From: Aliiroseovarius zhejiangensis
GTDB taxonomy: Bacteria > Pseudomonadota > Alphaproteobacteria > Rhodobacterales > Rhodobacteraceae
Reading direction: 5' to 3'
Assembly: GCF_014656375.1 (NCBI RefSeq)
Contig: NZ_BNCH01000001.1
Span: 620,001 to 684,000 of the forward strand
Length of the DNA stretch: 64,000 nt
In this document: piece after piece, positions 9,875-47,595 of the stretch
Layout of the letters: every line of letters begins with the position of its first letter
Position numbering within the stretch: position 1 is the first letter of the stretch
Notes under the pieces: generated by a model
Databases searched by the model: none
What the model was told of the DNA's origin: nothing
Seen by the model: only the letters and a program-made list of their open reading frames with translations
Program-made: the position numbers and the translations under genes

Positions 9875-9878
9875 CCAC

Positions 9879-10529: not shown

Positions 10530-10532
10530 CCC

Positions 10533-11228
10533 ATGCGCCGCCTGTTCCTGATCCTCGCCCTCATTTTTCCGATTGCTGGCACCGCCTATGCGGAGACTCA
10601 GCCGCGCCAAGGCCCCTTTGATGCCCGTGTCCGGCTGGCTACCTATCAAGATGGGCAGGTCTACCGCATCCGCACCAGCCTGACCCACGTGACCAGCATT
10701 GAATTCGGCCAGGGCGAGACCATCCGCTCGATCATCGCGGGCGACACTGAAGGGTTTCTCCTGGACGGCGTGCCCGGCGGTCAGGCCTTTGCGATCAAAC
10801 CAGTCTCGCGCGGCGCGCATACCAACATCACCGTCTACACCAACCGGCGCAGCTATTACTTCAACGTGACCGAGGCGAGCTCACCGACGTTCTATGTCAT
10901 CCGTTTCACCTATCCCGATTCTGCCCCCCAGCAGTCTCGAGTTGCCGCAAGCAAACCTGCAAACCACGCCTATGGCGTCAGCGCACGGTCCGAGATCACA
11001 CCGCGCGAAATCTGGGACGATGGCACCTTCACCTATTTCCGCTTTGCCGCAAACGCGCCGCTGCCAGCGATCTTTCGCTGGTCCGGTGGCAACGAGCGCA
11101 GCGTGAATGCTCTAGCCCGACCAGATGGCGTGATCCGTGTGTCAGGTGTCAGCGATCGATGGGTTCTCAGGCTTGGGGAGGACGAGATCTGCGTCCAAGA
11201 GATGAGCGAGGCAAACCAAGATGAGTGA
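10533..11228 (+). CDS. virB9: VirB9 outer-membrane core component
   Basis: 231 residues with a signal peptide (ending GTAYAE). N-terminal beta domain contains YQDGQVYRIRTSLTHVTSIEF, the usual VirB9/TrbG opening. The C-terminal beta-sandwich includes ITPREIWDDGTFTYFRF, the segment that binds VirB7. It would form the outer ring with VirB7 and VirB10. It overlaps virB10 by 8 bases. Confidence 0.94.
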   Translation: MRRLFLILALIFPIAGTAYAETQPRQGPFDARVRLATYQDGQVYRIRTSLTHVTSIEFGQGETIRSIIAGDTEGFLLDGVPGGQAFAIKPVSRGAHTNITVYTNRRSYYFNVTEASSPTFYVIRFTYPDSAPQQSRVAASKPANHAYGVSARSEITPREIWDDGTFTYFRFAANAPLPAIFRWSGGNERSVNALARPDGVIRVSGVSDRWVLRLGEDEICVQEMSEANQDE

Positions 11229-12534: not shown

Positions 12535-12536
12535 TC

Positions 12537-32276: not shown

Positions 32277-32518
32277 ACGATGGGATCAAAAAGCAGCCCG
32301 TGAAAATTCGCATTGGTATGATTGTTGTCTCGGTCTGCTTCACGGGTCAGCCCGACATTCGAATCCCATTTCATACCGAAGTCACCGTGAATGATAACTT
32401 GCCTGACGAACGCATCCGAGTAATGGCGATATAGATCTCCCGGGAGATCAATGTCTGCTTTGACGATCCCCTCAGGTGCATGCTGCGAAGCGGCGAACGA
32501 CCGGATTCCGCCCTTCAT
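32277..32518 (-). pseudogene. 5' fragment of an unknown gene downstream of virD4
   Basis: A reading frame begins at ATG 32518, overlapping the virD4 stop as ATGA. It gives a protein-like sequence (VKADIDLPGDLYRHYSDAFV, then QVIIHGDFGMKWDS) for about 80 residues. It then runs into the antisense of the dehydrogenase gene, where the sequence stops looking like protein. This fits a backbone gene that was cut off when the glp cargo entered. A 16-base perfect palindrome, GATCTCCCGGGAGATC (32434-32449), lies within it. No family is recognised. Confidence 0.4.
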
Positions 32519-34407
32519 CCCCGAGCTGCCTCCTCCATAAATCTCTCCACCCGTTCAGCTCCTGCTTGATACTCGCCCAAACCAGGCTTTTCGCCTGACG
32601 CCGGACCCCGCTCTTCATTGGCCAAAGCATCGATCTCTTCGCGCCGCGTCCCTCCGCTTTCGGACCCGTCACCTGAAACCGCTCTCGGCATCTCAAGCGC
32701 CCCAATCTTCGCCTCCAGCGCCTTGATCTGCCCTTGCAGCCCGCGCATTTGGTCTCCGGCTGAGGGATATGGCAGATCGCCGGTCTGTTTGTCGAAGATC
32801 TGTTTGAAGAACCGATCCTCATAGTATTTGATCCGCTTGGCCCGCACGGGCATTTGTGCGTCGACGACCAAGACGATGTCATCAAGATCCATGCGCCGCG
32901 CCTCATCCTCGGGCAGCAACTCGGTTTCTTCAGTCCGTTCAGACATGCTGCGCCCGGCGAAAGGGTTTCGGCCGACAGAACGCGAGCGGGTCACAACGCG
33001 CTTGGTGGTTTTGCCGACGGCTTTGCTGAGCTCTTCAATGGTCTTTTCATCCGATGGTGTCAGATAGAGCTTGATGCCTGCGTTACCCTGCAGAGCGCGG
33101 CGGGCATTTTCTCCGTAGATTTCGTCCAAAGCCGGGATCGTCTGTGTGACGATCGCTAGGTTGGCCCGGTAGGATCGCAGCGTCTCGATACTGTCGAGCA
33201 CGATCGGCATTTTGCCCAGGCGATTGAACTCATCGAGCATGATCATCACCGGCCAAGGTTCGTCCTTGCCGGGTTCATGGTCCTGCAGCGATGCCAGCAA
33301 GTCCGAGAAGAACAGGCGGATCAGCGGCGCGAGAGGTTTTACCATGAGCGGCTCGACCACAAGATAGACCGAAAACGGCATCTTTCGGATGTCGCGAAAA
33401 TCGAAGTCTGAGGTAGCTGTTGCACGGTCGATGGCGGGGTTCGACCACTGCTTGAGGCCAGATGTCATCAAGAGCGACAGGTAAGATGTCAGGGTATCGT
33501 TGTTGGTCGAGGCCATACGCATGAAAATCAGCTTGGCGGCTGGATTGACCACTTCGTCGGCGCGGCGGCGATATTCCTTCTGCTTGTCCCCGCCTGAGGC
33601 CGTGATGCGGTAGATCTCACCCAAGGTCGGCCGCTTGCGCTCAAACGCCAAAAGCCCTGCCGCTACGAATAGATCGATACCGCCATCAAGGAGCCCCTGA
33701 ACCCGATCGTTATCAGCCTGAAGGAACAGCGATGCCAAGAGTTGTAGCTCCATCTGCTGGCGGTCGACATTTTCGAGCGCTGATATGCGCAGTAACGGAT
33801 TGTACCGGTGCGAGCGGCCATCCTTCCAATCAGTGGGCGCAAACCGGAACACCTTGTCGCCCTGCGCGGCCCTGTGGCGCGCTGTCGCCTCGAAATTTTC
33901 GCCCTTCACGTCCAGCACAACCGCGCTGCCTTGATAGGTTAAAAGGTTGGGAATGACGAACCCCGTGGTCTTTCCGCGTCCGGTTGGAGCCACGATCAGC
34001 GCATGGGGGAACACCTTGGACATCACGAAGGGTTTGCGGCTCTTGGGCTTGCCCATTTTGCCGAGGACAAAGCCGTGACCGGGCTTTCCGAAAAAGCCGT
34101 TCCGCTTCATCTCCGACATCTGCTGCCAGTGGGTTTCCCCAAATTTGGTCAGCGCATCGTTCATCAAGACCGCACTGAGCAAAACACCGGCACCAGTGCT
34201 GATCCCCACGATCAAGTGAACAATCTGCATATCGGCCGGATGGGTCATTCGGAGAACCCCATAGCTGCGCGCCAACATCAGAAAATCGATATCAGTCCCG
34301 ACCCCGAACCAGCGGAATGTCAGAAAGGCCGACGCCAGAACATATCCCAGCACTACGCCGAGAAGAGCAAAGCTCATGACGCCGAGTGCGATCCGCGCCT
34401 TACCCAT
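32515..34407 (-). CDS. virD4: VirD4/TraG type IV coupling protein
   Basis: 630 residues. DNA-pumping ATPase that links the relaxosome to the VirB channel. Two N-terminal transmembrane helices (about 8-30 and 64-83), Walker A APTGRGKT (140-147), Walker B MIMLDEFNRLGK (about 383-394) and IVTQTIPALDEIYG. The C-terminal 70 residues are charged. It overlaps the relaxase gene by 8 bases, forming a mobC-virD2-virD4 operon on the minus strand, opposite to virB. Confidence 0.94.
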   Translation of the reverse strand: MGKARIALGVMSFALLGVVLGYVLASAFLTFRWFGVGTDIDFLMLARSYGVLRMTHPADMQIVHLIVGISTGAGVLLSAVLMNDALTKFGETHWQQMSEMKRNGFFGKPGHGFVLGKMGKPKSRKPFVMSKVFPHALIVAPTGRGKTTGFVIPNLLTYQGSAVVLDVKGENFEATARHRAAQGDKVFRFAPTDWKDGRSHRYNPLLRISALENVDRQQMELQLLASLFLQADNDRVQGLLDGGIDLFVAAGLLAFERKRPTLGEIYRITASGGDKQKEYRRRADEVVNPAAKLIFMRMASTNNDTLTSYLSLLMTSGLKQWSNPAIDRATATSDFDFRDIRKMPFSVYLVVEPLMVKPLAPLIRLFFSDLLASLQDHEPGKDEPWPVMIMLDEFNRLGKMPIVLDSIETLRSYRANLAIVTQTIPALDEIYGENARRALQGNAGIKLYLTPSDEKTIEELSKAVGKTTKRVVTRSRSVGRNPFAGRSMSERTEETELLPEDEARRMDLDDIVLVVDAQMPVRAKRIKYYEDRFFKQIFDKQTGDLPYPSAGDQMRGLQGQIKALEAKIGALEMPRAVSGDGSESGGTRREEIDALANEERGPASGEKPGLGEYQAGAERVERFMEEAARG

Positions 34408-36208
34408 GCGTCACGCCCTTTTCGCCGTCGGCATCAACATGCCGCTCGCGTTGGAGGTCTATTTCCTCATTGGCGATCTCGTCGAGGACATGCTCCATCG
34501 CCACGCTGTTCGCCAGAGCGGCATCGCTCTGCAGATAGGCCTTGGCCGCATATAGACGGTCCAGACGGTCTTCGATATGTTCCTCAAACGCTGTCTCATC
34601 GCCAATCGCCAAGTCCTGGGTGCCCTCTTCACCGACCAGTTCCTCCATCTCAGCACGCAAGGTCTCGCGTTCCAGATCGTTACGGAATGGATCTGCCGTT
34701 GGGTCGTCCCTCATACGGCTCAGGATATCAGCCGTGGTCGGCGGCAACCCGTCGACTATGGCTTCCTGCCGGTCGGCCTCCACCACTCCACTGTCCTTGA
34801 GAACTTCAGCATCGGCCAACATACGACCCAGATCACTGTGCACCTGGTCAAGGCGGTCGATCGCTTTCTCAAGCTCATCGGCGCGTGACAGGTCAAAGCC
34901 ATCCTTCTCGGCAATCGCCTTCAAATCCTGTCCAAGCCATTGCCGCTCGAGCGCGGCATTGCCCGCGCCGTTTTCGACACGACGTGTCACCTCTTGCGCG
35001 TTAATGCCGGTGCCTTTCAAAGCCTGCTGGAGACGTTCTGCCAGAGCTGGATCCTGCAACGCTTCTTGAGCTTCGGCCTGGATATTTGCGGCAGAATAAA
35101 TCCCACTCTTGGACGCATCCTCGAGCAATGTGTGGGACTGCGTTCCCATTGGGCTGAGATGTGACAGTGAGCGATAGATGTCGTTGAGCTCATGCTCGAG
35201 CGCCGCCCGCCGTTCAACCGGAGCGTCCGCGACGATCCGTTCGGCCTGATGGATCTTGTCGTGAAAGGCATCCACGACCTCATCAAACGAATGCTGTTCT
35301 TCGGCCATGCCATATACCTTTCCATCTGCTTCAATCGGTTTGCCCTGCGCCAAAAGCGTCGCGGCCTTGTCCAAGGCTGCTGCAATGTCATGCTGGTTCT
35401 CGCGCGAGGCCTCGGCCGTCAAGCCGCGATAGTGCCGCGCGTTCTGCGCCACCTCAGCCAAGGCACGGTCAAGCTCCGGCCCCACGCGCTCACGCTCGGT
35501 CAGCTTCTGCCCCGTGGCTTCTGCACGACGTTGGTCCAAGTCGCTTGGGCTCTTCGTCGTGATCCCACGCTCGAGCTTTCGCGTCGCCTCAAGCCGCAGC
35601 CCATATCGGTCCGACACCTCGACCATGGCCTCACGAAAACTGTCGTAGTTGAAATGGTGCCCTTCTTTCAGAAAGAAGAATTCGCCGTCCTTGCTGCGAC
35701 GGTTGAGAACGATGTGGGCGTGCGGGTGATCCCGGTCCTCATGCACGGCGGCGATGTAGTCAAAATGGCTGCCTTCGCCTTGAAAGAACCGCTCGCAAAT
35801 CTCGCGCGTGATCTCGACGACATCCTCACCGCGCGTGCCAATCGGGAAGGCCATCAGTAGGTGCGATGTATGCCCCAGCTTAGGATGAAACCCCTCATTC
35901 CACTGCGCTGAAAACCGGCGCGTGACCTGCTCGATCTCTTTGGCCGACAAGACGCTTTGGCCGTCATACGTGCCACGGCTGTCGATGATAAAGCTCGACT
36001 TAGTTGTGAGGTATTCCAGCTGGTTGCGCAGCTGCACTTTGTTGTTCGTGCCGCCGTCGCGAATGGCTTTGAAGATCGCAGGGGAATGCCCCATGGCGGC
36101 GCGCGCCATCTGCTTTGCGCGGGCGCGCGGGACGCTGCCACGAATGCGGCTCCAGTCGCGATCAAAGAAGGCCTCCTGCGTGGCGGCAACGGCGCTATTC
36201 CGGGCCAT
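34400..36208 (-). CDS. virD2: VirD2/MobP-type relaxase
   Basis: 602 residues from ATG 36208, which has GGGAGG upstream; a TTG further up overlaps mobC. The relaxase nicks oriT and stays bound to the T-strand. Likely catalytic tyrosine is Y66 in RNQLEYLTTKS. The metal-binding motif HEDRDHPHAHIVLNRR (from residue 156) carries the histidine triad. The remaining 400 residues are helical and charged, probably secretion signal and scaffolding. Product is intact. Confidence 0.92.
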   Translation of the reverse strand: MARNSAVAATQEAFFDRDWSRIRGSVPRARAKQMARAAMGHSPAIFKAIRDGGTNNKVQLRNQLEYLTTKSSFIIDSRGTYDGQSVLSAKEIEQVTRRFSAQWNEGFHPKLGHTSHLLMAFPIGTRGEDVVEITREICERFFQGEGSHFDYIAAVHEDRDHPHAHIVLNRRSKDGEFFFLKEGHHFNYDSFREAMVEVSDRYGLRLEATRKLERGITTKSPSDLDQRRAEATGQKLTERERVGPELDRALAEVAQNARHYRGLTAEASRENQHDIAAALDKAATLLAQGKPIEADGKVYGMAEEQHSFDEVVDAFHDKIHQAERIVADAPVERRAALEHELNDIYRSLSHLSPMGTQSHTLLEDASKSGIYSAANIQAEAQEALQDPALAERLQQALKGTGINAQEVTRRVENGAGNAALERQWLGQDLKAIAEKDGFDLSRADELEKAIDRLDQVHSDLGRMLADAEVLKDSGVVEADRQEAIVDGLPPTTADILSRMRDDPTADPFRNDLERETLRAEMEELVGEEGTQDLAIGDETAFEEHIEDRLDRLYAAKAYLQSDAALANSVAMEHVLDEIANEEIDLQRERHVDADGEKGVTHG

Positions 36209-36785
36209 CGGCAAAGCCTCCCAGTACGCGGGCAACCTCGCCAGACAGCGCGCTGCGGCGGCGCTGCGCCATGTCCTGAACCTGGTCGGCGATGTCGAAG
36301 ATCAACCCGGCCAAGGCGCGGACCTGGCCATGGGCGGAATTGCCATAGGGCGGCGTCTTGCCTTGGCGCTTTGCCTCGTTCAGGCGCTGCGCAATCTGAT
36401 TAACATTGTTGCCGGTGCGATTGAGCGAGGCCGAGAGCCCCTGCATCTGATTGGCCAGTTCGTCGTCAGGAACAAAGAGATCGTTTGAGGCATGGATCAG
36501 CCGCCGTAATCCCTCCGCGCGGCTGGTGATATCATGCCGCGTCAGCACCGCATCAAAGCTCGAAAGCTCCTTTGGCGTCAGCCGGACATTCACCAGTTCA
36601 GAGCGCACGCGCGCATCAAGCTTGCGGCTTTGATCGGCCTTCAATGTGTAGAAGATGCTCCGGGTCGTTACCCCGAATTCACGGGCCAGATCCTCGATCG
36701 ACACCCCTTCGGCACGCTTGCGCACGATGGCAAAGCGCTGGTTCTGCGTCAGCCGCTTGTGGCGTGGTGCGCGCGGTCGGCCCAT
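36195..36785 (-). CDS. mobC: MobC-like relaxosome protein with N-terminal HTH
   Basis: 196 residues. Residues 10-48 form a Hin/resolvase-like helix-turn-helix (LTQNQRFAIVRKRAEGVSIE, DLAREFGVTTRSIFYTL). The rest matches MobC-type accessory proteins (VRLTPKELSSFDAVLTRHDI, then LSASLNRTGNNVNQIAQRLN). MobC proteins bind near nic and help the relaxase open the strands. It overlaps the relaxase start by 14 bases and lies right beside the candidate oriT. Confidence 0.85.
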   Translation of the reverse strand: MGRPRAPRHKRLTQNQRFAIVRKRAEGVSIEDLAREFGVTTRSIFYTLKADQSRKLDARVRSELVNVRLTPKELSSFDAVLTRHDITSRAEGLRRLIHASNDLFVPDDELANQMQGLSASLNRTGNNVNQIAQRLNEAKRQGKTPPYGNSAHGQVRALAGLIFDIADQVQDMAQRRRSALSGEVARVLGGFADGPE

Positions 36786-36818
36786 GTGAAGTAATCACCC
36801 CTATTTCTTGCCAGCATC

Positions 36819-36954
36819 ATACAGGCAGCTCTGTTATGGCATTTCACCATAATTGAATCAATATTATAGCATTGCATCAACTGCCTGTATTCCATTTGGA
36901 GCAGCCATCGGCTGCGACCGCCGGGCAAAGCCCGGCCCCATGCGCAAGGCATGG
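36819..36954. other. Candidate oriT: cluster of inverted repeats
   Basis: The gap upstream of mobC is AT-rich at first and then full of hairpins. A long-range pair ATACAGGCAG (36819-36828) / CTGCCTGTAT (36881-36890) surrounds an AT-rich stretch. Three tight hairpins follow: GCAGCC-ATC-GGCTGC (36901-36915), GCCGGGC-AAA-GCCCGGC (36920-36936) and CCATGC-GCAAG-GCATGG (36938-36954). Position between relaxase genes and the leading region fits oriT. The nic site cannot be named, and one hairpin could instead terminate the leading-region operon. Confidence 0.55.
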
Positions 36955-36959
36955 CACCA

Positions 36960-37241
36960 CTAATCGTGGTTCCACGCCTCAGCATCGCCAAGCAATTGCA
37001 AAGCTATTGCGCGGGCCGCGCCTTCGGCGCTGGCATAGGTTTGATGATCGAGCAGCTCGTGCAGATCAAAAGGCTGTTGTGGGTCGTCCGGGGTCTCGAC
37101 CCGGACATAGATCGCCCAGCCATCGATCCGTGCTGGATCATCACAATACTCCTGCCCGCCATCGGGCAAGTTGCAAAACCCATGTAAATGCACGCTGGCG
37201 CGGCCCTCTCGGGCCGCCTGCTTGATATCAGAATACTTCAT
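36960..37241 (-). CDS. Unknown small leading-region protein
   Basis: 93 residues from ATG 37241 (MKYSDIKQAAREGRASVHLH). Mixed alpha/beta with an acidic middle and a helical end (ASAEGAARAIALQLLGDAEA). No family is recognised. It is the last of four consecutively overlapping genes transcribed toward oriT, which supports a real gene. By position it is a candidate for protection of the incoming strand. Confidence 0.6.
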   Translation of the reverse strand: MKYSDIKQAAREGRASVHLHGFCNLPDGGQEYCDDPARIDGWAIYVRVETPDDPQQPFDLHELLDHQTYASAEGAARAIALQLLGDAEAWNHD

Positions 37242-37452
37242 GGCAAACCTCGGCGCTTTCACTGATGAAGAATTCGTCAGGCCTGCCGTTCAGGCGAGTG
37301 CCATCCGGACTGGTCAAACCAATAGCTGACCCGTTCCGCGAGAAGGTGATGAGGTACTGCCCAAGACCATCACACGTCACCACATACCCGCTGTTGGCCC
37401 AGTGAACGCGGTTGCCCGCGTCCACTGCTGCTTTGATCTCATCCAAGGTCAT
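37228..37452 (-). CDS. Unknown small leading-region protein
   Basis: 74 residues, MTLDEIKAAVDAGNRVHWAN followed by a beta-rich stretch (YVVTCDGLGQYLITFSRNGS). It looks like a compact beta domain with one leading helix. The start overlaps the upstream stop (ATGA) and its own end overlaps the next gene by 14 bases. No family assigned; similar small proteins are seen on roseobacter mobile elements, but I cannot name one. Confidence 0.6.
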   Translation of the reverse strand: MTLDEIKAAVDAGNRVHWANSGYVVTCDGLGQYLITFSRNGSAIGLTSPDGTRLNGRPDEFFISESAEVCHEVF

Positions 37453-37652
37453 CGCAACACCTCTTCAAGGATTGCGAGGGCCCCAAGGCAATCGTCGATA
37501 TAGGCCTGCTCCTCGCCGTCCAGATCGTTCAGCTCCAGCCGGTTCAGAACCGCGTAAAGCGTGGCGCGGGCCTCTCGGGCAGCGCTTCGCAGGCTGACGG
37601 TGTCTTCCAGACGCGCCGTAGCGAAATCATCGCTGTGATAGTCAGGGGTCAT
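37449..37652 (-). CDS. Unknown small acidic helical protein
   Basis: 67 residues from ATG 37652 (MTPDYHSDDFATARLEDTVS). Strongly acidic and mainly helical (ARATLYAVLNRLELNDLDGE, then AYIDDCLGALAILEEVLR). The acidity could suit a DNA-mimic or inhibitor, which is speculative. It overlaps both neighbours by 4 bases (ATGA), so the four genes form one translational chain. Confidence 0.58.
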   Translation of the reverse strand: MTPDYHSDDFATARLEDTVSLRSAAREARATLYAVLNRLELNDLDGEEQAYIDDCLGALAILEEVLR

Positions 37653-37957
37653 CGGATTTCTCCCGCCTTGTGTTTCCAACGCGGGGCGATGTCCTTGAAC
37701 GGCACCGTAAAGGGCGGCAGCGCGTCAAAGCCGTTCGAGCTTTTGGCCACCTTCACCTTGGCGCAATCATCCTCAACGCTGAGGATCTCGACACAGAACA
37801 CACCGCCCAAACCTGACGGAACAACGATCTCCTTCAGCTCATGCCGATGCTTCCCGCAATAGACACAGGTGCTATAAAGCCCGTCGATGATGTGACCGCC
37901 GGTCGTGCGATCACAGTCGCAGGTCCAGAATTTTTGGGGCTGATATTTGTGAGCCAT
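37649..37957 (-). CDS. Zinc-ribbon-like leading-region protein
   Basis: 102 residues from ATG 37957, preceded by RBS AGGAGG. Two pairs of metal-ligand-like residues, CDCD near residue 13 and CVYCGKH near residue 30, suggest a small zinc ribbon, followed by a beta-rich part (GGVFCVEILSVEDDCAKVKV). First gene of the downstream leading-region operon and immediately behind leader copy A. No known family. Confidence 0.62.
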   Translation of the reverse strand: MAHKYQPQKFWTCDCDRTTGGHIIDGLYSTCVYCGKHRHELKEIVVPSGLGGVFCVEILSVEDDCAKVKVAKSSNGFDALPPFTVPFKDIAPRWKHKAGEIR

Positions 37958-37995
37958 TTGTGGCCTCCTTTTGGGTGCTGCGGTTGGGGCTTGGC

Positions 37996-38310
37996 TCCCC
38001 TTCCGCCGATGGGCTGCACACCGGCCAATCTGATCTGACCGAATACGCATGTATTCGGCGGAACAGAGTGGGTGGGGGCACAGCCCGACCCACGCCCCTG
38101 GAGCGGCCAGTCAATGGGTCAGAGCCAGCAACTGGTGCGGCCCGCAGCGCGCGCCGCGCGAGGACACGGGTTGCAGGCTTTGACGACGCGCCCGCGCGGC
38201 GCTTGCCCATTGACGGGACGCGGCAGGGATGTTGGGCGGACCAATCAAATTGAAAGAAGCCTGAAGGAGGTGAGCGGGCTGAAAGCCAGCCGATCCTCCG
38301 CACAGTCCGT
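37996..38310 (-). repeat. Duplicated leader, copy A (double hairpin)
   Basis: This segment lies upstream of the gene at 37957 and matches copy B at 39503-39835 in two blocks, about 37996-38118 and 38224-38310, with a divergent middle. The first block is roughly 85-90% alike by eye. It includes the exact palindrome CCGAATACGCATGTATTCGG (38039-38058) and a second hairpin with inner stem GGGC-ACA-GCCC, flanked by GTGGG and ACCCAC. A promoter active on single-stranded T-DNA is inferred. Confidence 0.75.
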
Positions 38311-38404
38311 TTCTAAGGGCGGCCCGTGCGCAGCAGCACGGGCCACAATTTTTCATCTGGTTCAAAATGCCTGCGCCCCGCCACATGAGGCGGGGCGCAG
38401 ACGT

Positions 38405-38584
38405 TTAAAGCTCAACACCGGCTTTCAAGTTGCCGTCCGGATCCAGCCAGGAACGGGCCTCGGCGCAATCCAAGCAAATACAGGAGCAACTGCCTTTAAC
38501 GATGACCGGCGCGAGAAAGATCACTGGGTTTGACGCGCCGCATTTGCGGCACGTCATTGGGGGCAGGATTGCTGGGCCGCTCAT
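38405..38584 (-). CDS. Small zinc-ribbon protein downstream of ardC
   Basis: 59 residues from ATG 38584, overlapping the ardC stop (ATGA). Contains CRKCG and CICLDC, a probable Cys4 zinc ribbon, in a beta-rich context (NPVIFLAPVIVKGSCSCI). No family name. Co-translation with ArdC points to a linked role in the leading region. Too short to judge more. Confidence 0.6.
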   Translation of the reverse strand: MSGPAILPPMTCRKCGASNPVIFLAPVIVKGSCSCICLDCAEARSWLDPDGNLKAGVEL

Positions 38585-39459
38585 GCTGCGGCCGCTTTCG
38601 ATTGACCTGCGGCTGCTAGGACAAAATCGGCTGCCTTCTGGGCCTCGGACGCCGCGCGAAAAATCGCCCGTTTGTCCTCTTTGAGAGCTTTCAACCACCC
38701 TTCGACATAGGCGGCGCTTTGGTCGAATTCCGGCGCGACGCCAATCTGGGCACCAAGGAAACAAGCGCCGATTTCCGCCACCAGCTCTTCAAAGGCGTAG
38801 GCCTCACGGTTGGCAAACTTCTTGATCCGCTCCAACCGCTTTTCGCTGCCGGTCCAATGGATCACCTCATGGGCCAACGTCCCATAATAGCCTGCCGCAT
38901 CGTGAAACGTGGCAATCGGCGGCATGTGGATGTGATCTTTGGCGGGGCTGTAATAGGCACGCGGGTCGTCGCTGGTGAGGATCTCCGCCCCTGTCCGGCT
39001 GAAAAACGCCTCAAGCTCTGGATCTTCCGCCGTCCCAAGGTCGCGGGGTTCCTCGGGCCGGATGTAGTAATCCTCCGGCAATCCCTCGATCTGATCCGCA
39101 TTGAACACGCGATAGGCGCGCGCATAGGGCAGCTCTTCCTCGATGCCCAACTCGTTCTCTCGGGTGAACGTCCCGTATTTGACCACGGTCGACGACGTTT
39201 CGCCTCTGCAGACCTGACCGCCCAGCTCTTGGGCCTGCTTGTAGGTCATCCAGCGGCTGGAAACATGGCCATGCTTGGCCGCCATGATCCAGAGCATCAG
39301 GATATTAATCCCGCGATACTCCTCCCCGTTGTGTCGGGTCGGCAGGGCAATGCCGGACGCGCTCCCTGTCCACGGCTTGCGCCACGGTGGCGTGCCTGCC
39401 TCGATCTCAGCAATAATGGTTTCGGTGACATGGGCGTAAACATCAAACTTCGGTGCCAT
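38581..39459 (-). CDS. ardC: ArdC-type antirestriction protein
   Basis: 292 residues. N-terminal ArdC ssDNA-binding domain (about 1-125: VYAHVTETIIAEIEAGTPPW, RKPW, YRGINILML, WMTYKQAQELGGQVCRGE) and a C-terminal zincin-like metallopeptidase domain with HEVIH at 197-201 and downstream ELVAEIGACF. ArdC binds single-stranded DNA and shields entering DNA from restriction. Strong RBS AGGAGG, same as for the gene at 37957. It is transcribed toward oriT from leader copy B. Confidence 0.92.
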   Translation of the reverse strand: MAPKFDVYAHVTETIIAEIEAGTPPWRKPWTGSASGIALPTRHNGEEYRGINILMLWIMAAKHGHVSSRWMTYKQAQELGGQVCRGETSSTVVKYGTFTRENELGIEEELPYARAYRVFNADQIEGLPEDYYIRPEEPRDLGTAEDPELEAFFSRTGAEILTSDDPRAYYSPAKDHIHMPPIATFHDAAGYYGTLAHEVIHWTGSEKRLERIKKFANREAYAFEELVAEIGACFLGAQIGVAPEFDQSAAYVEGWLKALKEDKRAIFRAASEAQKAADFVLAAAGQSKAAAA

Positions 39460-39502
39460 TTGTGGCCTCCTTGATCAAAGTGACGCGGGTGAGGCTTCGC
39501 GC

Positions 39503-39835
39503 CCCCTTCCGCCGATGGGCTGCGCCTCGGCCACCTGATCTGACCGAATACGCATGTATTCGGCGGAACAGAGTGGGAGAGGGCAAAGCCCGACCCACGG
39601 CCCTGAACGGGACTGTCAATCGGCCACATTTGCGAAGAAAATGTCTGCGCCAAAATCAGACGCCAATTTGACCCGCGAGGAATGGCTCGCTCGCGAGACA
39701 GGGGAAATTGGTGGCTGATTTTGGGGATGGACTAAGGTTGACCGCCACGGTCAGGGATGTTGGGCGGACCAAACAAAATGAGGGATGCCTGAAGCGGGGT
39801 GAGCGGGCCAACGGCCCGTTGAGCTCCGGTGCAGA
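39503..39835 (-). repeat. Duplicated leader, copy B (double hairpin)
   Basis: Second copy of the leader, here in front of ardC. It carries the same 20-base palindrome at 39544-39563. The second hairpin differs in sequence but keeps its shape: GTGGG, inner stem GGGC-AAA-GCCC, ACCCAC. The distal block beginning AGGGATGTTGGGCGGACCAA (about 39753) repeats that of copy A. With 39836-39963 this fills the 504-base gap between ardC and hsdM. Confidence 0.75.
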
Positions 39836-39963
39836 CATAATCACCACAAAAAACACAACCAGAAAGTGAAGTGTTTTTACGCTACCCCGTGATTTGCATG
39901 GTAAACGCCCGAGATTACGCATAATTTGCTTGCAATAATCTTGAGCAGTTGGGGGCAAATCCT

Positions 39964-42153
39964 TTGAACCAAAACCACGATAAACTTGTCGGCCTCATTT
40001 GGAGCATCGCCAACAAACTCCGCGGTCCTTACCGCCCCCCGCAGTATCGTCGTGTCATGCTGCCCATGACCGTGCTGCGGCGCATGGATCTGGTTCTCGC
40101 TCCAAACAAAGACAAAGTGCTCACCCAGTACGAAAAGCTGCAGGCCCAGGGCCACAGCGAAGAAGCGATTCACAAGATCCTCGGCAAGACCGCAACCGAT
40201 GACCGAGAGCAACCGCTCTACAACGTCAGCAAGTATGACTTTGAAAAACTTCTTGGTGATCCGAACAACATCGCGCGCAATCTGGTCACGTACATCGAAG
40301 GCTTCTCCCCCAAGGCCAAAGACATCTTCTCAAAATTCGGCTTTGATGCCGAGATCGAGAAGCTCGACAACGCCAACCGTCTGTTCATGGTGATCCAAGA
40401 GTTCGCCAAGCCCGAAGTTGACCTGCACCCCGACCGCGTCAGCAACCTGCAGATGGGCTACGTCTTCGAAGAGCTGGTACGCAAGTTCAACGAACAAGCC
40501 AACGAAGAAGCCGGGGATCACTTCACCCCGCGCGAGGTCATCCGACTGATGGCCCACCTCATGTACACGGAGGACGAAGACGTCTACACGCCCGGCATCG
40601 CGCGCACGATCTATGACCCAACCTGCGGGACCGGCGGCATGCTCTCGGTGTCCGAGGAATACATCCGCGAGCAAAACCCGCAAGCCAACCTCATCCTATA
40701 CGGCCAAGAATACAACGCCGAGTCCTACGCGATCTGCTGTTCAGACCTGCTCATCAAGGATGAACCGATTGACAACATCCACTTCGGTGACACGTTGGGC
40801 GACGGAAAATCTGAGGACGGCCACCCGGACAAGAAGTTCCACTACATGATGGCCAACCCGCCCTTCGGCGTGGAATGGAAAACCCAGCAATCCATCGTTC
40901 AGAAAGAGGCTGACGCGCTCGGCTTCTCGGGCCGCTTTGGCGCGGGAACGCCGCGCATCAATGACGGCGCGCTGCTGTTTCTCCAAACGATGATCAGCAA
41001 GATGCGTCCCAGCCCCGAGATCGGCGGCGACGGCTCCAAGATCGCAATCGTCTTCAACGGCTCCCCCCTCTTCACGGGCGACGCCGGTTCAGGCGAAAGC
41101 AACATCCGCCGTTGGATCATCGAGAACGATTGGCTCGACGCGATCATCGCGCTGCCGGACCAGATGTTCTACAACACCGGTATTTTCACCTACATCTGGA
41201 TTGTCTCGAACCGCAAACGGCCCGAGCGGCGTGGCAAGGTGCAGCTGATCGACGGCACCAAGCATTTCATGAAGATGCGCAAGAGCCTGGGCAACAAGCG
41301 CAACGAACTTGGCGACGGCGAGGATGGCAAGCCAGACCACATCGGTGAGATCACGCGCCTCTATGCCGCCTTCAAACACGACGACACCTCGAACGTCATC
41401 ATTGACGGCAAGACGAAAGAGCGGATTTGTTCCAAGATCTTTGACAACCGCGACTTCGGCTATCTCAAGATCACGGTCGAACGCCCGCTCAAGCTGAACT
41501 TCCAAGCCAGCGCGGAACGCATCGCGCGGCTTGCGGGCGAGACCGCCTTTGCCAAGCTGTCCGAAAGCAAGAAACGCAAGGACAGTGCGGTCATTGCGGC
41601 GGAGGAAGAGGCAGGCAAAGCGCTACAGGCCCAGATCATTGCCGTGCTGGAGGGCATGCCCGACACGCTGGTCAAGAACCGTGCTGACTTCATCAAAACG
41701 CTCAACGCCGCGTTCAAATCTGCAGGCATCAAGCTCGAAGCGCCGATCCGCAAGGCAATCCTTAGCGCGCTGTCGGAACGGGATGAGACCGCCGACACCT
41801 GCACAGATGCCAAAGGCAACCCCGAGCCGGATACCGAGCTGCGCGATACCGAACTGGTACCGCTGCCCAAGGATATCGAGCTGCCCATGCTGAACGCGGG
41901 CGAAGGCGAGCTGACGGATGATCAGCTGCCCGATCTCGTGCACGAACATGTTGAAATCTACCTCGCCGCCGAGGTGCATCCGCACGTGCCTGACGCCTGG
42001 GTAGACCACAAGAAAACCAAGATGGGATATGAAATCCCGCTCAACCGGCATTTCTATGTCTACGAGCCGCCGCGCAATTTGGAGGAGATTGAAACAGATA
42101 TCGCGGACGTCACCCGTGACATCATGGACATGCTTAAGGGGATCACCGCATGA
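39964..42153 (+). CDS. hsdM: Type I restriction-modification methyltransferase HsdM
   Basis: 729 residues from TTG 39964, with GGGGG eight bases upstream; a TTG at 39949 would overlap that RBS. N6-adenine methyltransferase. Helical N-terminal HsdM domain, SAM motif I DPTCGTGGM (about 218) and catalytic NPPFG (about 298). The C-terminal 200 residues are longer than in short HsdM proteins. ATGA overlap with hsdS. Divergent from ardC. Confidence 0.93.
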   Translation: MNQNHDKLVGLIWSIANKLRGPYRPPQYRRVMLPMTVLRRMDLVLAPNKDKVLTQYEKLQAQGHSEEAIHKILGKTATDDREQPLYNVSKYDFEKLLGDPNNIARNLVTYIEGFSPKAKDIFSKFGFDAEIEKLDNANRLFMVIQEFAKPEVDLHPDRVSNLQMGYVFEELVRKFNEQANEEAGDHFTPREVIRLMAHLMYTEDEDVYTPGIARTIYDPTCGTGGMLSVSEEYIREQNPQANLILYGQEYNAESYAICCSDLLIKDEPIDNIHFGDTLGDGKSEDGHPDKKFHYMMANPPFGVEWKTQQSIVQKEADALGFSGRFGAGTPRINDGALLFLQTMISKMRPSPEIGGDGSKIAIVFNGSPLFTGDAGSGESNIRRWIIENDWLDAIIALPDQMFYNTGIFTYIWIVSNRKRPERRGKVQLIDGTKHFMKMRKSLGNKRNELGDGEDGKPDHIGEITRLYAAFKHDDTSNVIIDGKTKERICSKIFDNRDFGYLKITVERPLKLNFQASAERIARLAGETAFAKLSESKKRKDSAVIAAEEEAGKALQAQIIAVLEGMPDTLVKNRADFIKTLNAAFKSAGIKLEAPIRKAILSALSERDETADTCTDAKGNPEPDTELRDTELVPLPKDIELPMLNAGEGELTDDQLPDLVHEHVEIYLAAEVHPHVPDAWVDHKKTKMGYEIPLNRHFYVYEPPRNLEEIETDIADVTRDIMDMLKGITA

Positions 42154-42845
42154 CTTATGAACCCTACCCGGCTTACAAAGATAGCGGCGCAGACTGGCTT
42201 GGCAAAATTCCAACTCAGTGGGAAGTTAAGCCGATCAAATTTTTCGCGACATATAACGACGAAGCACTACCAGATGGCACAGACCCGGATTTGATGCTGA
42301 ATTACGTCGATATTTCTAGTGTCAGCTTGGTCGAGGGCATTCAGAAAATAGAACAGGTAGAATTTGAAAAAGCTCCATCGAGGGCGCGCCGGATCGTCCG
42401 CGACGGCGACACAATCGTGTCGACAGTAAGGACCTACTTGAAGGCCATCGCACCGGTTCGCAGACCGATCGAAAATATGATCGTTTCGACTGGGTTTGCG
42501 GTAATTCGCCCCGACCGAACTATGAACCCCGACTATCTTGGCTATTTCATCCAATCCGAAGGCTTTGTTGGCGAAGTGGTCTCAAAGTCTAACGGTGTTA
42601 GTTATCCCGCAATCAACCCAGGCGATTTGGTTGGAATCTTAGGTCTCCGCCCACCGCTTGAAGAGCAGGCAGAAATCGTACGCTTTCTTGAAGAGAAAAC
42701 CGCAGAGATCGACAAGCTTTCCGGCAAACTTGGTTTGGAAAACTCCCCAAAAGGAAGCAATGGAGCAAGCTTAGGACGCCTGCTTCACGAGTATAGGAGC
42801 GCCCTAATCTCGAACGCAGTGACCGGTAAAATTAAGGTCGCGTAA
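42150..42845 (+). CDS. hsdS: Half-size type I specificity subunit HsdS
   Basis: 231 residues, about half the usual 400-450. One target-recognition domain (about 10-165: SGADWLGKIPTQWEVKPIKF to PAINPGDLVGILGLRPPLEE) is followed by one helical spacer (EQAEIVRFLEEKTAEIDKLS). It then runs straight to the conserved C-terminal motif LLHEYRSALISNAVTGKI. It may dimerise to give a symmetric target, or be the product of an internal deletion. Start overlaps hsdM, stop lies 2 bases from the next gene. Confidence 0.85.
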   Translation: MTYEPYPAYKDSGADWLGKIPTQWEVKPIKFFATYNDEALPDGTDPDLMLNYVDISSVSLVEGIQKIEQVEFEKAPSRARRIVRDGDTIVSTVRTYLKAIAPVRRPIENMIVSTGFAVIRPDRTMNPDYLGYFIQSEGFVGEVVSKSNGVSYPAINPGDLVGILGLRPPLEEQAEIVRFLEEKTAEIDKLSGKLGLENSPKGSNGASLGRLLHEYRSALISNAVTGKIKVA

Positions 42846-42847
42846 TT

Positions 42848-43197
42848 ATGACAGTAAATGCACAGGGCTACTTCAATCAGCTGCAGACACAGCTTTCAGA
42901 CAAATACTGCGTCTTGCCCAATGATGCTGGGCAAATGGTTCTCACTGAGAAGCCCGAACCGGAGTCCCCCAAGCAAACGGTTCGCTTCACGTTTTCGGGG
43001 ACAGCGCTCGCGGTGAAGCTGGATAAGTTTCAAGCGCCCCTGTTCCATTTTTTGGAAAACAAAGGGCATCCTTGGTCCAAGCGTTGTGACTTCGTCGTGT
43101 TTCATTGTCGACGCAACGCGGTGCGGGCCTATTGCATCGAATTCAAAACTGCGCGCACTAATATTCCGGTCGATAAAGTGATCCCGCAACTAAATGC
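42848..43197 (+). pseudogene. N-terminal part of a nuclease-like gene, cut by IS DNA
   Basis: About 117 residues from ATG 42848, 2 bases after hsdS. The segment CDFVVFHCRRNAVRAYCIEF followed by K shows the D...(E)xK spacing of PD-(D/E)xK nucleases. The host sequence ends around 43197 (after IPQLNA), where an IS256 fragment begins. I propose that 47342-47587, just before hsdR, is its missing C-terminal end. It probably belonged to the RM operon as an accessory restriction gene. Confidence 0.6.
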
Positions 43198-43610
43198 AGC
43201 TCGAACAGCCCGAACAGTGCCCGCTTGACGCGCCGGGTATTGGTGCCGGAGAGATAGACTGCGGCGATCAAGGCTTCGGCCTTCTTGGTCAACCGCTGGT
43301 AACGGGGCAGCGCTTTCGAGCGCCATTCCGTCACCTTGCCAGCGTCATCCTCGATCCGGGCCCGCGGCACCCTCACCGTTTCCGTCCCGAAGGTGCAGGT
43401 GAGCTGCCGTTCGCGGTGCCCGTGGCGATAGCCTTTCGCAGCTCCGTCGCCACGGTCGTAGCGCAGGCGACCAAGAAAGCTGGCGAGTTCCTCCTCAAAA
43501 ACGGCCTCGATGGTCGCGCGGACGTTCATCCGGAGCCGCTCCTCGATCGGATCGAACCCGGCCTCATGGGCCAGTAGCGAAAAGCTGGAAGTATCGGTAT
43601 TCTTGGTCAT
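43198..43610 (-). pseudogene. Truncated IS256-family transposase
   Basis: 137 residues of an IS256 mutator-type transposase N-terminus (GFDPIEERLRMNVRATIEAV, FEEELASFLGR, then RRVKRALFGLFE). Intact proteins are about 400 residues, so the catalytic part is lost at 43198. Start ATG 43610. Inactive. Confidence 0.8.
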
Positions 43611-43715
43611 GGCGTGATCTCCCTGGCGGTTGCCGCCGCCGGTTGGGTGGGTGGATGTTCACCCGGAGATTACGCCGCCTTCAAATTTCCACCAACTCCG
43701 AGACACGACCACAGC
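43198..43715. mobile_element. IS256-family remnant
   Basis: Comprises the truncated transposase plus about 100 bases upstream of its start to the element end near 43715, where AbiTii-like coding sequence begins. The other end, including its inverted repeat, is missing, so a deletion after insertion removed most of the IS along with host sequence. Confidence 0.65.
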
Positions 43716-44060
43716 AGATGAGTTCATGACAGACCTGCTCAGCACGGCTCGTGTTGCGCAGTCAATTGGTAGCCTCCGTGACTTGGTGTCTCGTGAAGGG
43801 AATGGCCTTTACCATTTCCCAATCCCTACAGAAATAGTCAATGAAATTAATAAGTTGATGAATATACAGACCCCTCGCATGGTTGTTCAAATTCCTCGTG
43901 GTGGAATCGTGGGTATTTTGGATTTTGTTCGCAACAAAGTCCTGGACTGGTCAATCGAAATGGAACGAAGCGGAGTGTTGGGCGATGGTTTCACGTTCAA
44001 TGCAACCGAGGTAGAGAGCGCGAAAACGGTCATGACAACATTTAACAGCGGTTCTCCAGG
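43716..44060 (+). pseudogene. Fragment of an AbiTii-like abortive-infection gene
   Basis: About 115 residues in frame without their own start: VAQSIGSLRDLVSREGNGLY, FPIPTEIVNEINKL, then GGIVGILDFVRNKVLDWSIE. The last block matches the GILDTVRNxxLDxxLELE pattern of AbiTii domains. The N-terminal half is lost at the IS256 junction, and the frame enters unrelated sequence after about 44060. It is non-functional debris of a phage-defence gene. Confidence 0.6.
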
Positions 44061-44484
44061 GCCGGTTGCTGCCATATGGTTGAAAAAATCCGGCACGGCG
44101 TCGGCCGCCGCCGCCTCGTCAAGACCGTCTAATTCTGGGAAGGACAGGATACACTCGATCGACAGCGTCGCTCCAGGATCGAGCTCGGTTTGGTCAGGCC
44201 TAAGCGCGCATCATCGCGGTTCTTTCTCCGATGCCGCTGGAGGGCGGCACCAATTCATTGCCCGGCCTTGTCGGCTGCGCGGGCTCAGCGGTGGTCTTGC
44301 GCCCCTATCGGTCTGTTCCGACGGAACGTCAGGAATGCCCTGCGAAGCCACGAAACAGCGAAACTTGTCAGGCCCGGACACCCATTCGCGGTGAGGACGG
44401 CCCTTGGACGAACATAATGGCGTTGGGGCGGCAATTACAATGGGGAAATTTCGGCAGGCCCGCGCAGCGGGGATGCGGCGCGAG
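44061..44484. other. Scar region without recognisable gene
   Basis: About 420 bases between the AbiTii fragment and the secreted-protein gene. The open frames here lack coding character, and no repeat, tRNA or promoter stands out. It probably records further IS-mediated rearrangement. Confidence 0.4.
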
Positions 44485-45633
44485 TCATGGGCAGTTGGCG
44501 GCCAGCCAGTCCTGCAGCACTCCGACCTCTCGGCCATAGGCCGCAGCTTCCTCGGCGGCTTGGTTCTCGGGCACCTGCAGCCAAGCATAAAAGCTCGAAC
44601 GCGGCGCAGAAATACCGTCGACCAAGACACCCACGAACGGATCGACGTTATCCCAGTTGATGATACGCCCGTCGGGAGCCGTATAGGTCGGCGGCTTGTT
44701 CCAACGGCGGCAGGACTCGCGGTGCGTGGCCTCATGCGTGAAAGCGCCCTTGATAATGATTGCCGGCTGGCAGCTTTTGGCCACGTCAGCGGGTTCCATC
44801 ATCTTGATCTTGCAACTGACAGGGTCGACCTGCGCATAGGCGCCCGGCTGTGTCCTTGCGCCAGCGCTGCGATCGCCCGCATTCAACTCGCCTTGCGGAA
44901 CTATCTCTTCGGGCGCGGGCGGTGCCCCGCCCGTGGCCGTACTCGCCAGGGTCAGGTCATCATAGCTGTAGCGCGGCTTGTCGCCACCAAAAGCGTGAAG
45001 CCTGCGATTGTCGTCCATCCAGAAATTCTCGCCTGGACCGCTGCCGCGCAACCCTTCGGCGCGGGCCTGGGCGATCAGCGCCTTGTCCTCGTAGGACGCA
45101 AGGCGCGACTCCAGGAAATCGAGCTCCTCGCGCACCTTGGCGCACATGCAGGCCGCCGCCCTGCCCTGCCCCTGCAATTCCATCGGCAGCTTGCGGTTGG
45201 GCTTGCCCATCGTGGACATGGCCGGGGGCAGCGTGATCTCGAGGGTGAAGCCCTCGGTCATCGCAAAGCTCGCCTCCAGTTGCGCCGTATACTCGCCGCT
45301 CGACATGTCCAGGGGCGGCGGCGCGGCTGTCAGCTCGTAGAGGAACGGCCCGCCGAAGGGCGACGGCTCGGCCCCCGACCAATAGCCCGTGCCGGCGGAG
45401 CAATGCAGGATCACGTCCACGTCCGGCCCGTCGAACCGCTTGGCCTGGATGCGCATCTGCGTGGGACAGGCGGCCGCGTCGCCATCGACATAGCTGAGTG
45501 TCAGCGGCTCGGACGTGCCGTACACGCCTTCGCTGGGCAGAGGGTTGCAGCCGCAGCCCTCCGCCAGGGCGGCCCCCGCCCACAGGATCACCGCCACAGA
45601 CAGGCCGGCCCGCATCGCACCAGTCATCCCCAT
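44485..45633 (-). CDS. Secreted protein with HExxH motif, putative metallopeptidase
   Basis: 382 residues from ATG 45633, RBS AAGGAGGG. Signal peptide (AGLSVAVILWAGAALAEG, cut near residue 23) then a cysteine-rich start (CGCNPLP). A beta-rich half is followed by a C-terminal domain bearing GAFTHEATHRESCRRW. HEATH at 300-304 fits the zincin HExxH signature, with more acidic residues downstream. No family recognised. It could be an exported protease or toxin. It lies between IS fragments, so it arrived with them. Confidence 0.6.
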   Translation of the reverse strand: MGMTGAMRAGLSVAVILWAGAALAEGCGCNPLPSEGVYGTSEPLTLSYVDGDAAACPTQMRIQAKRFDGPDVDVILHCSAGTGYWSGAEPSPFGGPFLYELTAAPPPLDMSSGEYTAQLEASFAMTEGFTLEITLPPAMSTMGKPNRKLPMELQGQGRAAACMCAKVREELDFLESRLASYEDKALIAQARAEGLRGSGPGENFWMDDNRRLHAFGGDKPRYSYDDLTLASTATGGAPPAPEEIVPQGELNAGDRSAGARTQPGAYAQVDPVSCKIKMMEPADVAKSCQPAIIIKGAFTHEATHRESCRRWNKPPTYTAPDGRIINWDNVDPFVGVLVDGISAPRSSFYAWLQVPENQAAEEAAAYGREVGVLQDWLAANCP

Positions 45634-45719
45634 CGCACCCTCCTTGCGGGGGCGGGCAAGGGCGCGGCCCCCTCTACCCGACATTCCCCAAGTGGCCTGC
45701 CGCTTGACTTCAAGATCGC

Positions 45720-47326: not shown

Positions 47327-47341
47327 CGACTTACTTGGAGA

Positions 47342-47587
47342 ATGTGGGATGCAGGCCATCACTGGTGCGAGTCGCTTCACAATACGATCCGGAATTACAC
47401 CGCGTCGAAACGGCGTCTTCAGGTTTCAAAATATCTCTTCACCGCAAGTTTGGATCCCTCTGCGGTCTTGGATCCGACTGGGCGCTACCTTTTGAAGGAT
47501 ACGTCAATTCGACATTACAACTTCGACGAAGTTGATATGATGGATTTAGACGACATGGAAAATGACCATGTGTATACTGTTAGTTGA
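47342..47587 (+). pseudogene. C-terminal fragment of gene upstream of hsdR
   Basis: Open frame of about 80 residues (CESLHNTIRNYTASKRRLQV, then GRYLLKDTSIRHYNFDEVDM) ending 8 bases before the hsdR ATG. It has no credible start of its own and lies right after the IS1380 end. Its strand and place between hsdS and hsdR match the truncated gene at 42848, so I read the two as halves of one gene split by about 4.1 kb of IS-borne DNA. Confidence 0.5.
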
Positions 47588-47595
47588 TAGATATT

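What the first reader, a model, noticed from the sequence alone, without database searches (positions are those of the whole stretch)
37996..39835. Duplicated double-hairpin leaders: candidate single-stranded-DNA promoters
Two copies of a leader of about 315-330 bases, each with the same 20-base palindrome and a second hairpin whose sequence varies while its shape is kept, lie in front of ardC and in front of a four-gene chain. All these genes run toward oriT. If oriT is at 36.8-36.95 kb and this side enters first, the transferred strand is exactly the template for them. That matches the logic of Frpo/ssi-type promoters that fold on T-DNA to express protective genes before second-strand synthesis.
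Basis: partly seen in the sequence, partly recalled or inferred. Interest (0 to 1): 0.8.

Follow-up and report, generated by a model that had tools for sequence, protein, structure and literature searches.

The report
Repeated leaders that fold single-stranded DNA
Two repeated stretches of DNA in front of 'arrival' genes on a conjugative element belong to a widespread family whose predicted transferred strand is built to fold into hairpins, which suggests that those genes can be switched on while the incoming DNA is still single-stranded.

Summary
Two leaders (37960-38298, 39462-39827, minus strand) share hairpin sequences and end at a ribosome-binding site and start codon. They belong to a family, not found described in my searches, on plasmids and integrated elements of Rhodobacterales and some Hyphomicrobiales, before ardC, DUF3768, DUF4942, DUF3560 and DUF932 genes. 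The assumed polarity is supported by motif: a VirD2-like relaxase and a nick-like site (36810/36811) make the plus strand the transferred strand and the template of these genes. In 43 loci, 68 of 70 copies share the strand of mobC/relaxase and lie upstream of it. The structure covaries (62 of 102 pairs change on both sides), and the template strand folds better than the sense strand in 41 of 41 cluster representatives, beyond shuffle controls; F Frpo regions lean the same way, one clearly and one weakly. So the selected form appears to be folded transferred-strand DNA. No -10 box and no similarity to F Frpo were found; transcription is untested. Best reading: an Frpo-like but structurally distinct single-stranded-DNA initiation element. 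A 40-base hairpin cap also occurs on 235 plasmid records, gammaproteobacterial ones included.

The parts
37960..38298 (-). Leader copy A (sense = minus strand) in front of the four-gene chain
   Evidence: Profile envelope, 248.9 bits with a profile that includes it; repeats D1, D2, D5, D12
39462..39827 (-). Leader copy B in front of ardC; hairpin 1 has a different sequence
   Evidence: Profile envelope, 199.5 bits with a profile that includes it; repeats
38011..38086 (+). Hairpin 2 of copy A on the predicted transferred strand, with the 20-mer (38039-38058) at its tip
   Evidence: DNA fold of the plus strand; helix 5 of A2, 11 of 16 pairs with a change on both sides
38085..38239 (+). Hairpin 1 of copy A on the predicted transferred strand; its base competes with hairpin 2 and the middle hairpin for a few bases
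   Evidence: DNA fold; inverted repeat I1; helix 8 of A2, 16 of 23 pairs with a change on both sides
39517..39591 (+). Hairpin 2 of copy B, with the identical 20-mer at 39544-39563
   Evidence: By homology with copy A, read from the sequence; the isolated stretch also shows an alternative base pairing
39590..39767 (+). Hairpin 1 of copy B, same shape and different sequence
   Evidence: DNA fold; inverted repeat I8
38109..38114 (-). TTGACT in the 3' arm of hairpin 1, copy A (-35-like); mirrored by TTGACG at 38210-38215 (+)
   Evidence: Read from the sequence; TTGAC exact in 22 of 32 aligned leaders
39614..39619 (-). TTGACA in the 3' arm of hairpin 1, copy B; mirrored by TTGACC at 39738-39743 (+)
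   Evidence: Read from the sequence; TTGAC exact in 22 of 32 aligned leaders
36800..36815 (+). Predicted nick region CCTATTTCTTG|CCAGC, cut between 36810 and 36811; the transferred strand would start at 36811 and run to higher coordinates
   Evidence: This or a similar motif is on the template strand upstream of mobC/relaxase in 33 of 41 loci, on the other strand in 2; canonical TATCCTGC on the same strand in 6 of 19 oriT regions read; consensus YATCCTG|Y is recalled
36960..37957 (-). Four short ORFs behind leader A (37649-37957, 37449-37679, 37228-37452, 36960-37262); no family match
   Evidence: ORFs; Pfam and NCBIfam gave nothing at the limits used
38581..39459 (-). ardC-type gene (ArdcN plus MPTase-PolyVal)
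   Evidence: Pfam
38405..38584 (-). 59-aa ORF after ardC, no family match
36195..36785 (-). mobC-like HTH protein beside oriT
   Evidence: Pfam HTH_23; position and homologues
34400..36235 (-). VirD2-like relaxase
   Evidence: Pfam Relaxase E=1.2e-13; NCBIfam VirD2 E=2.8e-26, 93.1 bits against a cut-off of 623

Best explanation
The leaders are single-stranded-DNA initiation elements. When the plus strand enters a recipient 5' end first from the nick at about 36811, each leader folds on it into a branched domain (hairpin 1, a small middle hairpin, hairpin 2). That fold gives a transcribing enzyme, most likely the recipient's RNA polymerase, a local duplex to load on, so the four-gene chain and ardC are transcribed from the incoming strand before the second strand is made. 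Shown here by computation: conservation, covariation, strand-biased folding, position at gene starts, and polarity by motif. Inferred: recruitment of an enzyme, start of RNA synthesis, timing, and silence on duplex DNA.
For: The template strand folds better than the sense strand in 41 of 41 cluster representatives (DNA energies). In the 32-sequence alignment against dinucleotide shuffles, mean z is -3.18 vs -2.06 for hairpin 1 (28 of 32) and -6.10 vs -3.78 for the middle hairpin plus hairpin 2 (30 of 32). Eighty random 190-nt plasmid segments show no clear bias (46 of 80, p 0.15); of two F regions taken by position as Frpo, the one near oriT does (difference score 2.20-3.07), the one before ssb weakly (1.02-2.04, separate z about equal). 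Covariation on the transferred strand: 62 of 102 pairs with a change on both sides, 313 cells vs 110 in shuffles; sense strand 54 of 100 and 236 cells. In pairs predicted on both strands, wobbles suiting the transferred strand outnumber the others 52 to 24. Nick-like motif on the template strand. 68 of 70 copies on the strand of mobC/relaxase and upstream of it. 23 of 28 long plasmid copies end within 35 nt of an annotated start (with 35, 46). Sigma-70 scan of 37900-39900: 0 sites, 0.5 expected. Published: ArdC of R388 was required in recipient, not donor, cells (start of the abstract of PMC7213743 in listing 58).
Against: No -10 box near TTGAC: at most 2 of 6 letters in 30 leaders measured, whereas F Frpo is reported to rebuild both boxes (PMC9849209, passages). 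No transcript data. Aligned sequences are related, so tests over-count independent events, and the structures were derived from the same alignments. Some conserved G-T pairs of hairpin 1 suit the sense strand (A1 columns 177/209 in 26 of 32 rows, 118/156 in 24, 73/266 in 24). Class II leaders do not show the bias (difference score -1.23 for L154, -0.28 for L155), nor does L160 (-0.68). Cap-only copies occur on the opposite strand in L081, L155, L156 and weakly L090. L088 carries two leaders with a MobF relaxase on the other strand; it is outside the 68-of-70 count.
Confidence: 0.6

Rival explanations
1. Complementary-strand start sites (ssi/sso type): the fold loads a primase or primosome that begins second-strand synthesis; early gene expression is only indirect.
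For: Also predicts a fold on the transferred strand and placement in the leading region. F Frpo is described as serving transcription and priming (title of Masai and Arai 1997, seen as a reference). No -10 box is present.
Against: Does not by itself explain why 23 of 28 long plasmid copies end at a start codon (with 35, 46), or why one plasmid has three full-length copies before three different genes.
Confidence: 0.17
2. Conventional duplex promoters with operators, a regulon like the IncN CUP elements: the hairpin is a repressor site, silent in donors and derepressed in recipients.
For: Same genetic setting as CUP elements: repeated upstream sequences before ard genes, bound by ArdK (PMC6289460, passages).
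Against: No sigma-70 site found in the window leaders; other promoter types were not scanned. Arms of the 20-mer hairpin change by paired changes (A2 columns 93/107 and 95/105), which suits structure over a fixed operator. Folding is strand-biased, unlike three R46 regions taken as CUP (0.27 to 0.77). In L083, L085, L090, L091 and L092, 29 annotated minus-strand genes lie between first leader and mobC and none has a leader, apart from one weak cap-only match in L090 (with 35, 46; the gene tables are incomplete).
Confidence: 0.13
3. Structured mRNA leaders (riboregulators) acting on translation of the downstream gene.
For: Leaders abut the ribosome-binding site; the sense strand also covaries (54 of 100 pairs) and keeps some G-U pairs in hairpin 1.
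Against: No Rfam match at gathering score. The sense strand folds worse than its complement in 41 of 41 representatives.
Confidence: 0.06
4. Recombination or relaxosome sites that merely travel with the genes.
For: The hairpin-1 cap also occurs apart from full leaders and near rep or virC genes.
Against: Full leaders keep one orientation and mostly end at gene starts (with 35, 46).
Confidence: 0.04

Closest known systems
Frpo1/Frpo2 of plasmid F and ssi promoters of ColIb-P9
   Same: Repeated element in the leading region, upstream of genes whose template is the transferred strand, folded on that strand; shared neighbours in F (DUF932, ParB-like, anti-restriction genes). F regions lean to the same strand, one clearly, one weakly.
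   Different: No sequence similarity to the F leading region beyond matches of 14-18 nt. Predicted branched domain with several hairpins instead of one stem-loop (PMC9849209). No -10 box. VirD2-type alphaproteobacterial elements instead of a MOBF plasmid. Activity untested. ColIb-P9 was not compared.
CUP elements of IncN plasmids R46/pKM101
   Same: Conserved repeats upstream of ard and other leading-region genes
   Different: The three R46 regions tested (before ardA, ardB, ccgAI; taken as CUP by position) show no strand bias and contain a promoter-like TTGACT-17-GATAAT before ardA and ccgAI (sequence); CUP is bound by ArdK (PMC6289460); only 14-15 nt matches to the leaders
Frpo candidates of Samuel et al. 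2024 (PMC11541004)
   Same: Predicted single-stranded promoters before anti-defence genes in leading regions
   Different: Those came from BLAST with known Frpo or from -35/-10/UP consensus searches (passages); the leaders lack a -10 box and were not named in the passages read. Their supplementary sequence table was not available here, so overlap is not excluded.

Membership tests
Frpo/ssi single-stranded promoters | Lies in the leading region, transferred strand is the template | tested here: met
   By motif and position only: nick-like motif on the template strand in 33 of 41 loci, on the other in 2; 68 of 70 copies in matching orientation
Frpo/ssi single-stranded promoters | Stable fold on the transferred strand | tested here: met
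   predicted and supported by covariation, not probed
Frpo/ssi single-stranded promoters | Fold rebuilds -35 and -10 boxes | tested here: not met
   TTGAC exact in 22 of 32 leaders; at 15-19 nt at most 2 of 6 letters of TATAAT in the 30 measured
Frpo/ssi single-stranded promoters | Sequence similarity to known Frpo | tested here: not met
   Only matches of 14-18 nt between 32 leaders and 18 kb of F with its leading region; ColIb-P9 not compared
Frpo/ssi single-stranded promoters | Starts RNA on single-stranded template | not testable with these tools
   Needs in vitro transcription
CUP regulon elements | Sequence similarity to CUP repeats | tested here: not met
   Only matches of 14-15 nt with 50 kb of R46
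CUP regulon elements | Bound by an ArdK-type repressor | not tested
   No repressor gene was searched for
Rfam cis-regulatory RNAs | Match to a described RNA family | tested here: not met
   0 matches at gathering score in the window; two sub-threshold matches in 36700-40100

The most novel reading that the evidence does not exclude
The leaders are a separate, independently evolved class of single-stranded-DNA promoters, built as a branched DNA domain without a -10 box and used across alphaproteobacterial conjugative elements; their hairpin-1 cap (about 40 nt) is a transferable module shared with plasmids of other proteobacterial classes, where it can precede homologous early genes such as DUF932 and anti-restriction genes.
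Probability: 0.35. Interest if true: 0.82.

Novelty: new variant of a known kind. Interest (0 to 1): 0.63.

Why it matters
Single-stranded promoters are established in a few enterobacterial plasmids and, in the papers read in part here, sought elsewhere by similarity to those or by -35/-10 consensus. This family would be a second solution found by folding bias and covariation. It would mark the leading region and transfer polarity of many alphaproteobacterial elements, point to unknown early genes (the four-gene chain, DUF3768, DUF4942, DUF3560), and give a general test: the transferred strand should fold better than its complement.

Tried and rejected
Rfam: no family; a mir-927 and a cold-seep-1 sub-threshold match were taken as chance. 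Sigma-70 scan: none. Sequence kinship with F or R46: none beyond 18 nt. An RNA-leader reading was considered first because the leaders abut the ribosome-binding site; the strand test spoke against it. I considered the hairpin-1 cap as the universal core of a transferred-strand promoter, but cap-only copies on the opposite strand and missing bias in class II leaders keep that as a lead. Literature searches: no listed title or shown abstract start describes these leaders; listings were capped at 20 papers, and supplements, preprints and most subscription papers were not searched. A covariance model was not built.

Rows dropped: alignments A1/A2 hold 30 of 41 cluster representatives (88% identity, from 159 full-length of 205 matches) plus the two window copies. 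The 11 left out were my choice: 7 that looked like kin of the window copies (not measured) and 4 with low scores (102.5, 68.2, 55.9, 30.6 bits). All 41 were later folded. In the -10 check 2 of 32 leaders had no TGAC before the expected place, and in at least 2 of the 30 measured (L034 at 5233, L114) the script took another TGAC. Own-genome duplicates of the window were removed. The 43 loci (window included) are not all independent (L008 and L097 are one place); 114 of 157 leader loci had no relaxase match in the fetched stretch. The random controls were drawn from L080-L093 without excluding leaders.

Full report
OBSERVATION. The two leaders are real and nearly where stated. Direct repeats pair 38030-38121 with 39535-39626 (88%), 38224-38266 with 39752-39794 (88%), 37997-38027 with 39503-39533 (90%) and 37953-37970 with 39455-39472 (100%), with start-to-start spacings of 1502-1528. 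Hairpin 1 is 38085-38239 in copy A and 39590-39767 in copy B and has quite different letters in the two.

A FAMILY. A DNA search with copy A found matches in 15 of 148 genomes, own included. An exact 30-mer occurs in 47 stretches of a collection of 84,980 species genomes, mostly of genera that I know as Rhodobacterales, plus for example one Henriciella. A distant search gave 37 plasmid records, 16 Paracoccus and 8 Phaeobacter among them. With other members as queries, 37 of 295 family and 47 of 292 order genomes matched; these counts include the own genome and short partial matches. Jiella, Ochrobactrum and Acuticoccus extend the family or its cap to Hyphomicrobiales. No Rfam family matches at gathering score.

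GENES BEHIND THE LEADERS. On annotated plasmids the leaders stand before ArdC/zincin genes, DUF3768 followed by a ParB-like gene, ORFs before DUF4942, DUF3560 plus methyltransferase, and DUF932 (Pfam). I count 28 long copies in these records; 23 end within 35 nt of an annotated start. The other five are L089 (no gene annotated), L092 at 5753 (annotated start lies inside the leader), L093 (match ends before the model end, 87 nt to the gene), and two weak copies 259 and 269 nt from the next gene (L083 at 8049, L157 at 14569). One Paracoccus plasmid (L083) has 6 matches: three full-length ones before three genes, and three weak or partial ones. In plasmid F the leading region also holds DUF932, ParB-like and anti-restriction genes.

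POLARITY. The window's relaxase resembles VirD2 (NCBIfam E=2.8e-26, far below that model's cut-off). VirD2/TraI-type relaxases cut at YATCCTG|Y (recalled). Of 19 oriT regions read, six (L082, L085, L086, L093, L154, L159) have TATCCTGC beside mobC on the template strand of the leader genes, and none showed TATCCTG or ATCCTGC on the other strand; L081 and L083 showed no clear motif. The window and its kin have TATTTCTTG|CC at the same place and strand. Over 41 loci a looser motif is on the template strand in 33 and on the other strand in 2. So the strand that enters would be the template of the leader genes and would enter from their side.

ORIENTATION. Of 70 copies in 43 loci with a mobC or relaxase match (window included), 68 are on its strand and upstream of it; 36 of 38 multi-copy loci have all copies on one strand. 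The two exceptions among the 70 are weak cap-only matches (L081, 26.6 bits; L155, 20.7 bits). Loci are not all independent, and 114 further leader loci had no relaxase in the fetched stretch. L088, a MobF plasmid, was not in that count: its relaxase is on the other strand.

STRUCTURE. On 32 diverse leaders (A1 sense, A2 transferred strand), the transferred-strand structure has 102 pairs: 88.2% of cells pair (shuffled 77.3), 62 pairs have a change on both sides (39.5), and 313 cells are changed on both sides (110.1); no shuffle of 500 reached any observed value. The sense structure scores lower on each: 100 pairs, 85.6%, 54, 236, also above every shuffle. Sliding the partner by 1-3 columns lowers pairing to 38.6-47.3%. 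These structures were derived from the same alignments, which favours them.

WHICH STRAND. With DNA energies the template strand folds better in 32 of 32 aligned leaders (mean -93.3 vs -77.5 kcal/mol) and in 41 of 41 representatives, dropped ones included. Composition explains part of this, so I compared with dinucleotide shuffles: mean z for hairpin 1 -3.18 vs -2.06 (28 of 32), for the middle hairpin plus hairpin 2 -6.10 vs -3.78 (30 of 32). Eighty random 190-nt segments gave a mean difference score of 0.26 (sd 1.27; 46 of 80 favour the template, p 0.15). Two F regions, taken by position as the Frpo copies, gave 2.20-3.07 (near oriT) and 1.02-2.04 (before ssb, where the separate z values are about equal); three R46 regions taken as CUP gave 0.27-0.77. 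In pairs predicted on both strands, wobbles suiting the transferred strand number 52, those suiting sense 24. This speaks against an RNA leader as the form under selection and for single-stranded transferred DNA.

HOW IT LIKELY WORKS. Hairpin 1 has TTGAC in both arms of the window copies (3' arm exact in 22 of 32 leaders), so a folded transferred strand presents a duplex -35-like element pointing toward the gene. At the normal distance stands GTGGGTCGGG or similar, not a -10 box: at most 2 of 6 letters match in 30 leaders, and the window leaders have no sigma-70 site. I therefore propose that the fold loads an enzyme on incoming DNA, most likely RNA polymerase, and that the gene behind is transcribed at once; priming of second-strand synthesis is the main rival, and both may happen, as the title of the 1997 Frpo paper says for Frpo. 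This step is inference. R388 ArdC, of the same named kind as the gene behind copy B, is reported to be required in recipients and not donors (abstract start in listing 58).

COMPARISON. F Frpo1 and Frpo2 are 92% alike, about 5 kb apart, fold into a stem-loop that rebuilds -10 and -35 boxes, and drive early transient expression (PMC9849209, passages). The present leaders match in setting, duplication, strand and expected use, but not in sequence or -10 box, and they are predicted to fold as a branched domain. IncN CUP elements share the setting and are bound by ArdK (PMC6289460, passages). Samuel et al. searched with known Frpo sequences and with promoter consensus (PMC11541004, passages), criteria that this family would likely escape; their sequence table was not seen.

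A WIDER LEAD. The tip of hairpin 1 (CCGTGTCCTCG...CTGCGGGCCGCACC) is present in 25 of 32 aligned leaders by its first half, is absent from copy B, and the cap recurs on 235 plasmid records (leader plasmids included) such as Pseudomonas 40, Klebsiella 22, Citrobacter 22, Enterobacter 19, Aeromonas 10, Xanthomonas 8, Salmonella 7, but only in 2 of 5426 E. coli genomes. The exact pattern occurs in 6 of 398 phylum-wide and 2 of 289 class-wide genomes, own included, and in 18 stretches of viral contigs; 7 of these 18 are followed by an ORF that looks like DUF932 by eye. In 30 of 38 distinct cap places TTGAC lies within 60 nt behind. Yet some copies stand on the opposite strand before a small gene near virC2 (L155, L156; also L081 and weakly L090), and the two class II leaders folded show no strand bias. 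What this cap does is unexplained.

Noticed in passing
L154:12006, L155:12006, L156:10006, L160:1846, L161:9005, L163:9004 and others: Hairpin-1 cap of about 40 nt, nearly constant across proteobacterial plasmids (235 PLSDB records), with TTGAC within 60 nt behind it in 30 of 38 places, in several cases followed by ardC, DUF932 or antirestriction genes.
   Followed up: partly
L155:18703-18746(-), L156 near 12610(-), L081:15627-15710(-), L090:35272-35317(-): Cap-only copies on the strand opposite to the leading genes, before a small ORF between ardC and virC2; in L155/L156 flanked by GACAGGG and CCCTGTCGAT instead of TTGAC. They do not fit a transferred-strand promoter.
   Followed up: no
G000:C7:136471-136502 (L171): A second copy of the cap elsewhere in the window's own genome, with a CTGTCGA-type flank.
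   Followed up: no
window 36923-36938: GGGCAAAGCCCGGCCC, close to the middle hairpin of the leaders (repeat D4), lies about 110 nt downstream of the predicted nick.
   Followed up: no
window 36820-36889: Inverted repeat ACAGGCAG...CTGCCTGT around an AT-rich stretch on the leading side of the predicted nick; the arms change together in L008 and mostly in L062.
   Followed up: no
window 39949-50655: Type I restriction genes (hsdM 39949-42153; hsdR 47584-50655) are separated by at least one DDE transposase gene (45899-47254); the element carries its own restriction genes next to ardC.
   Followed up: no
window 5440-13532 and 32515-34407: VirB4, VirB8, VirB10 and VirB11-type genes on the plus strand and a VirD4-type coupling protein on the minus strand, with transporter and sugar-kinase genes between.
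   Followed up: partly
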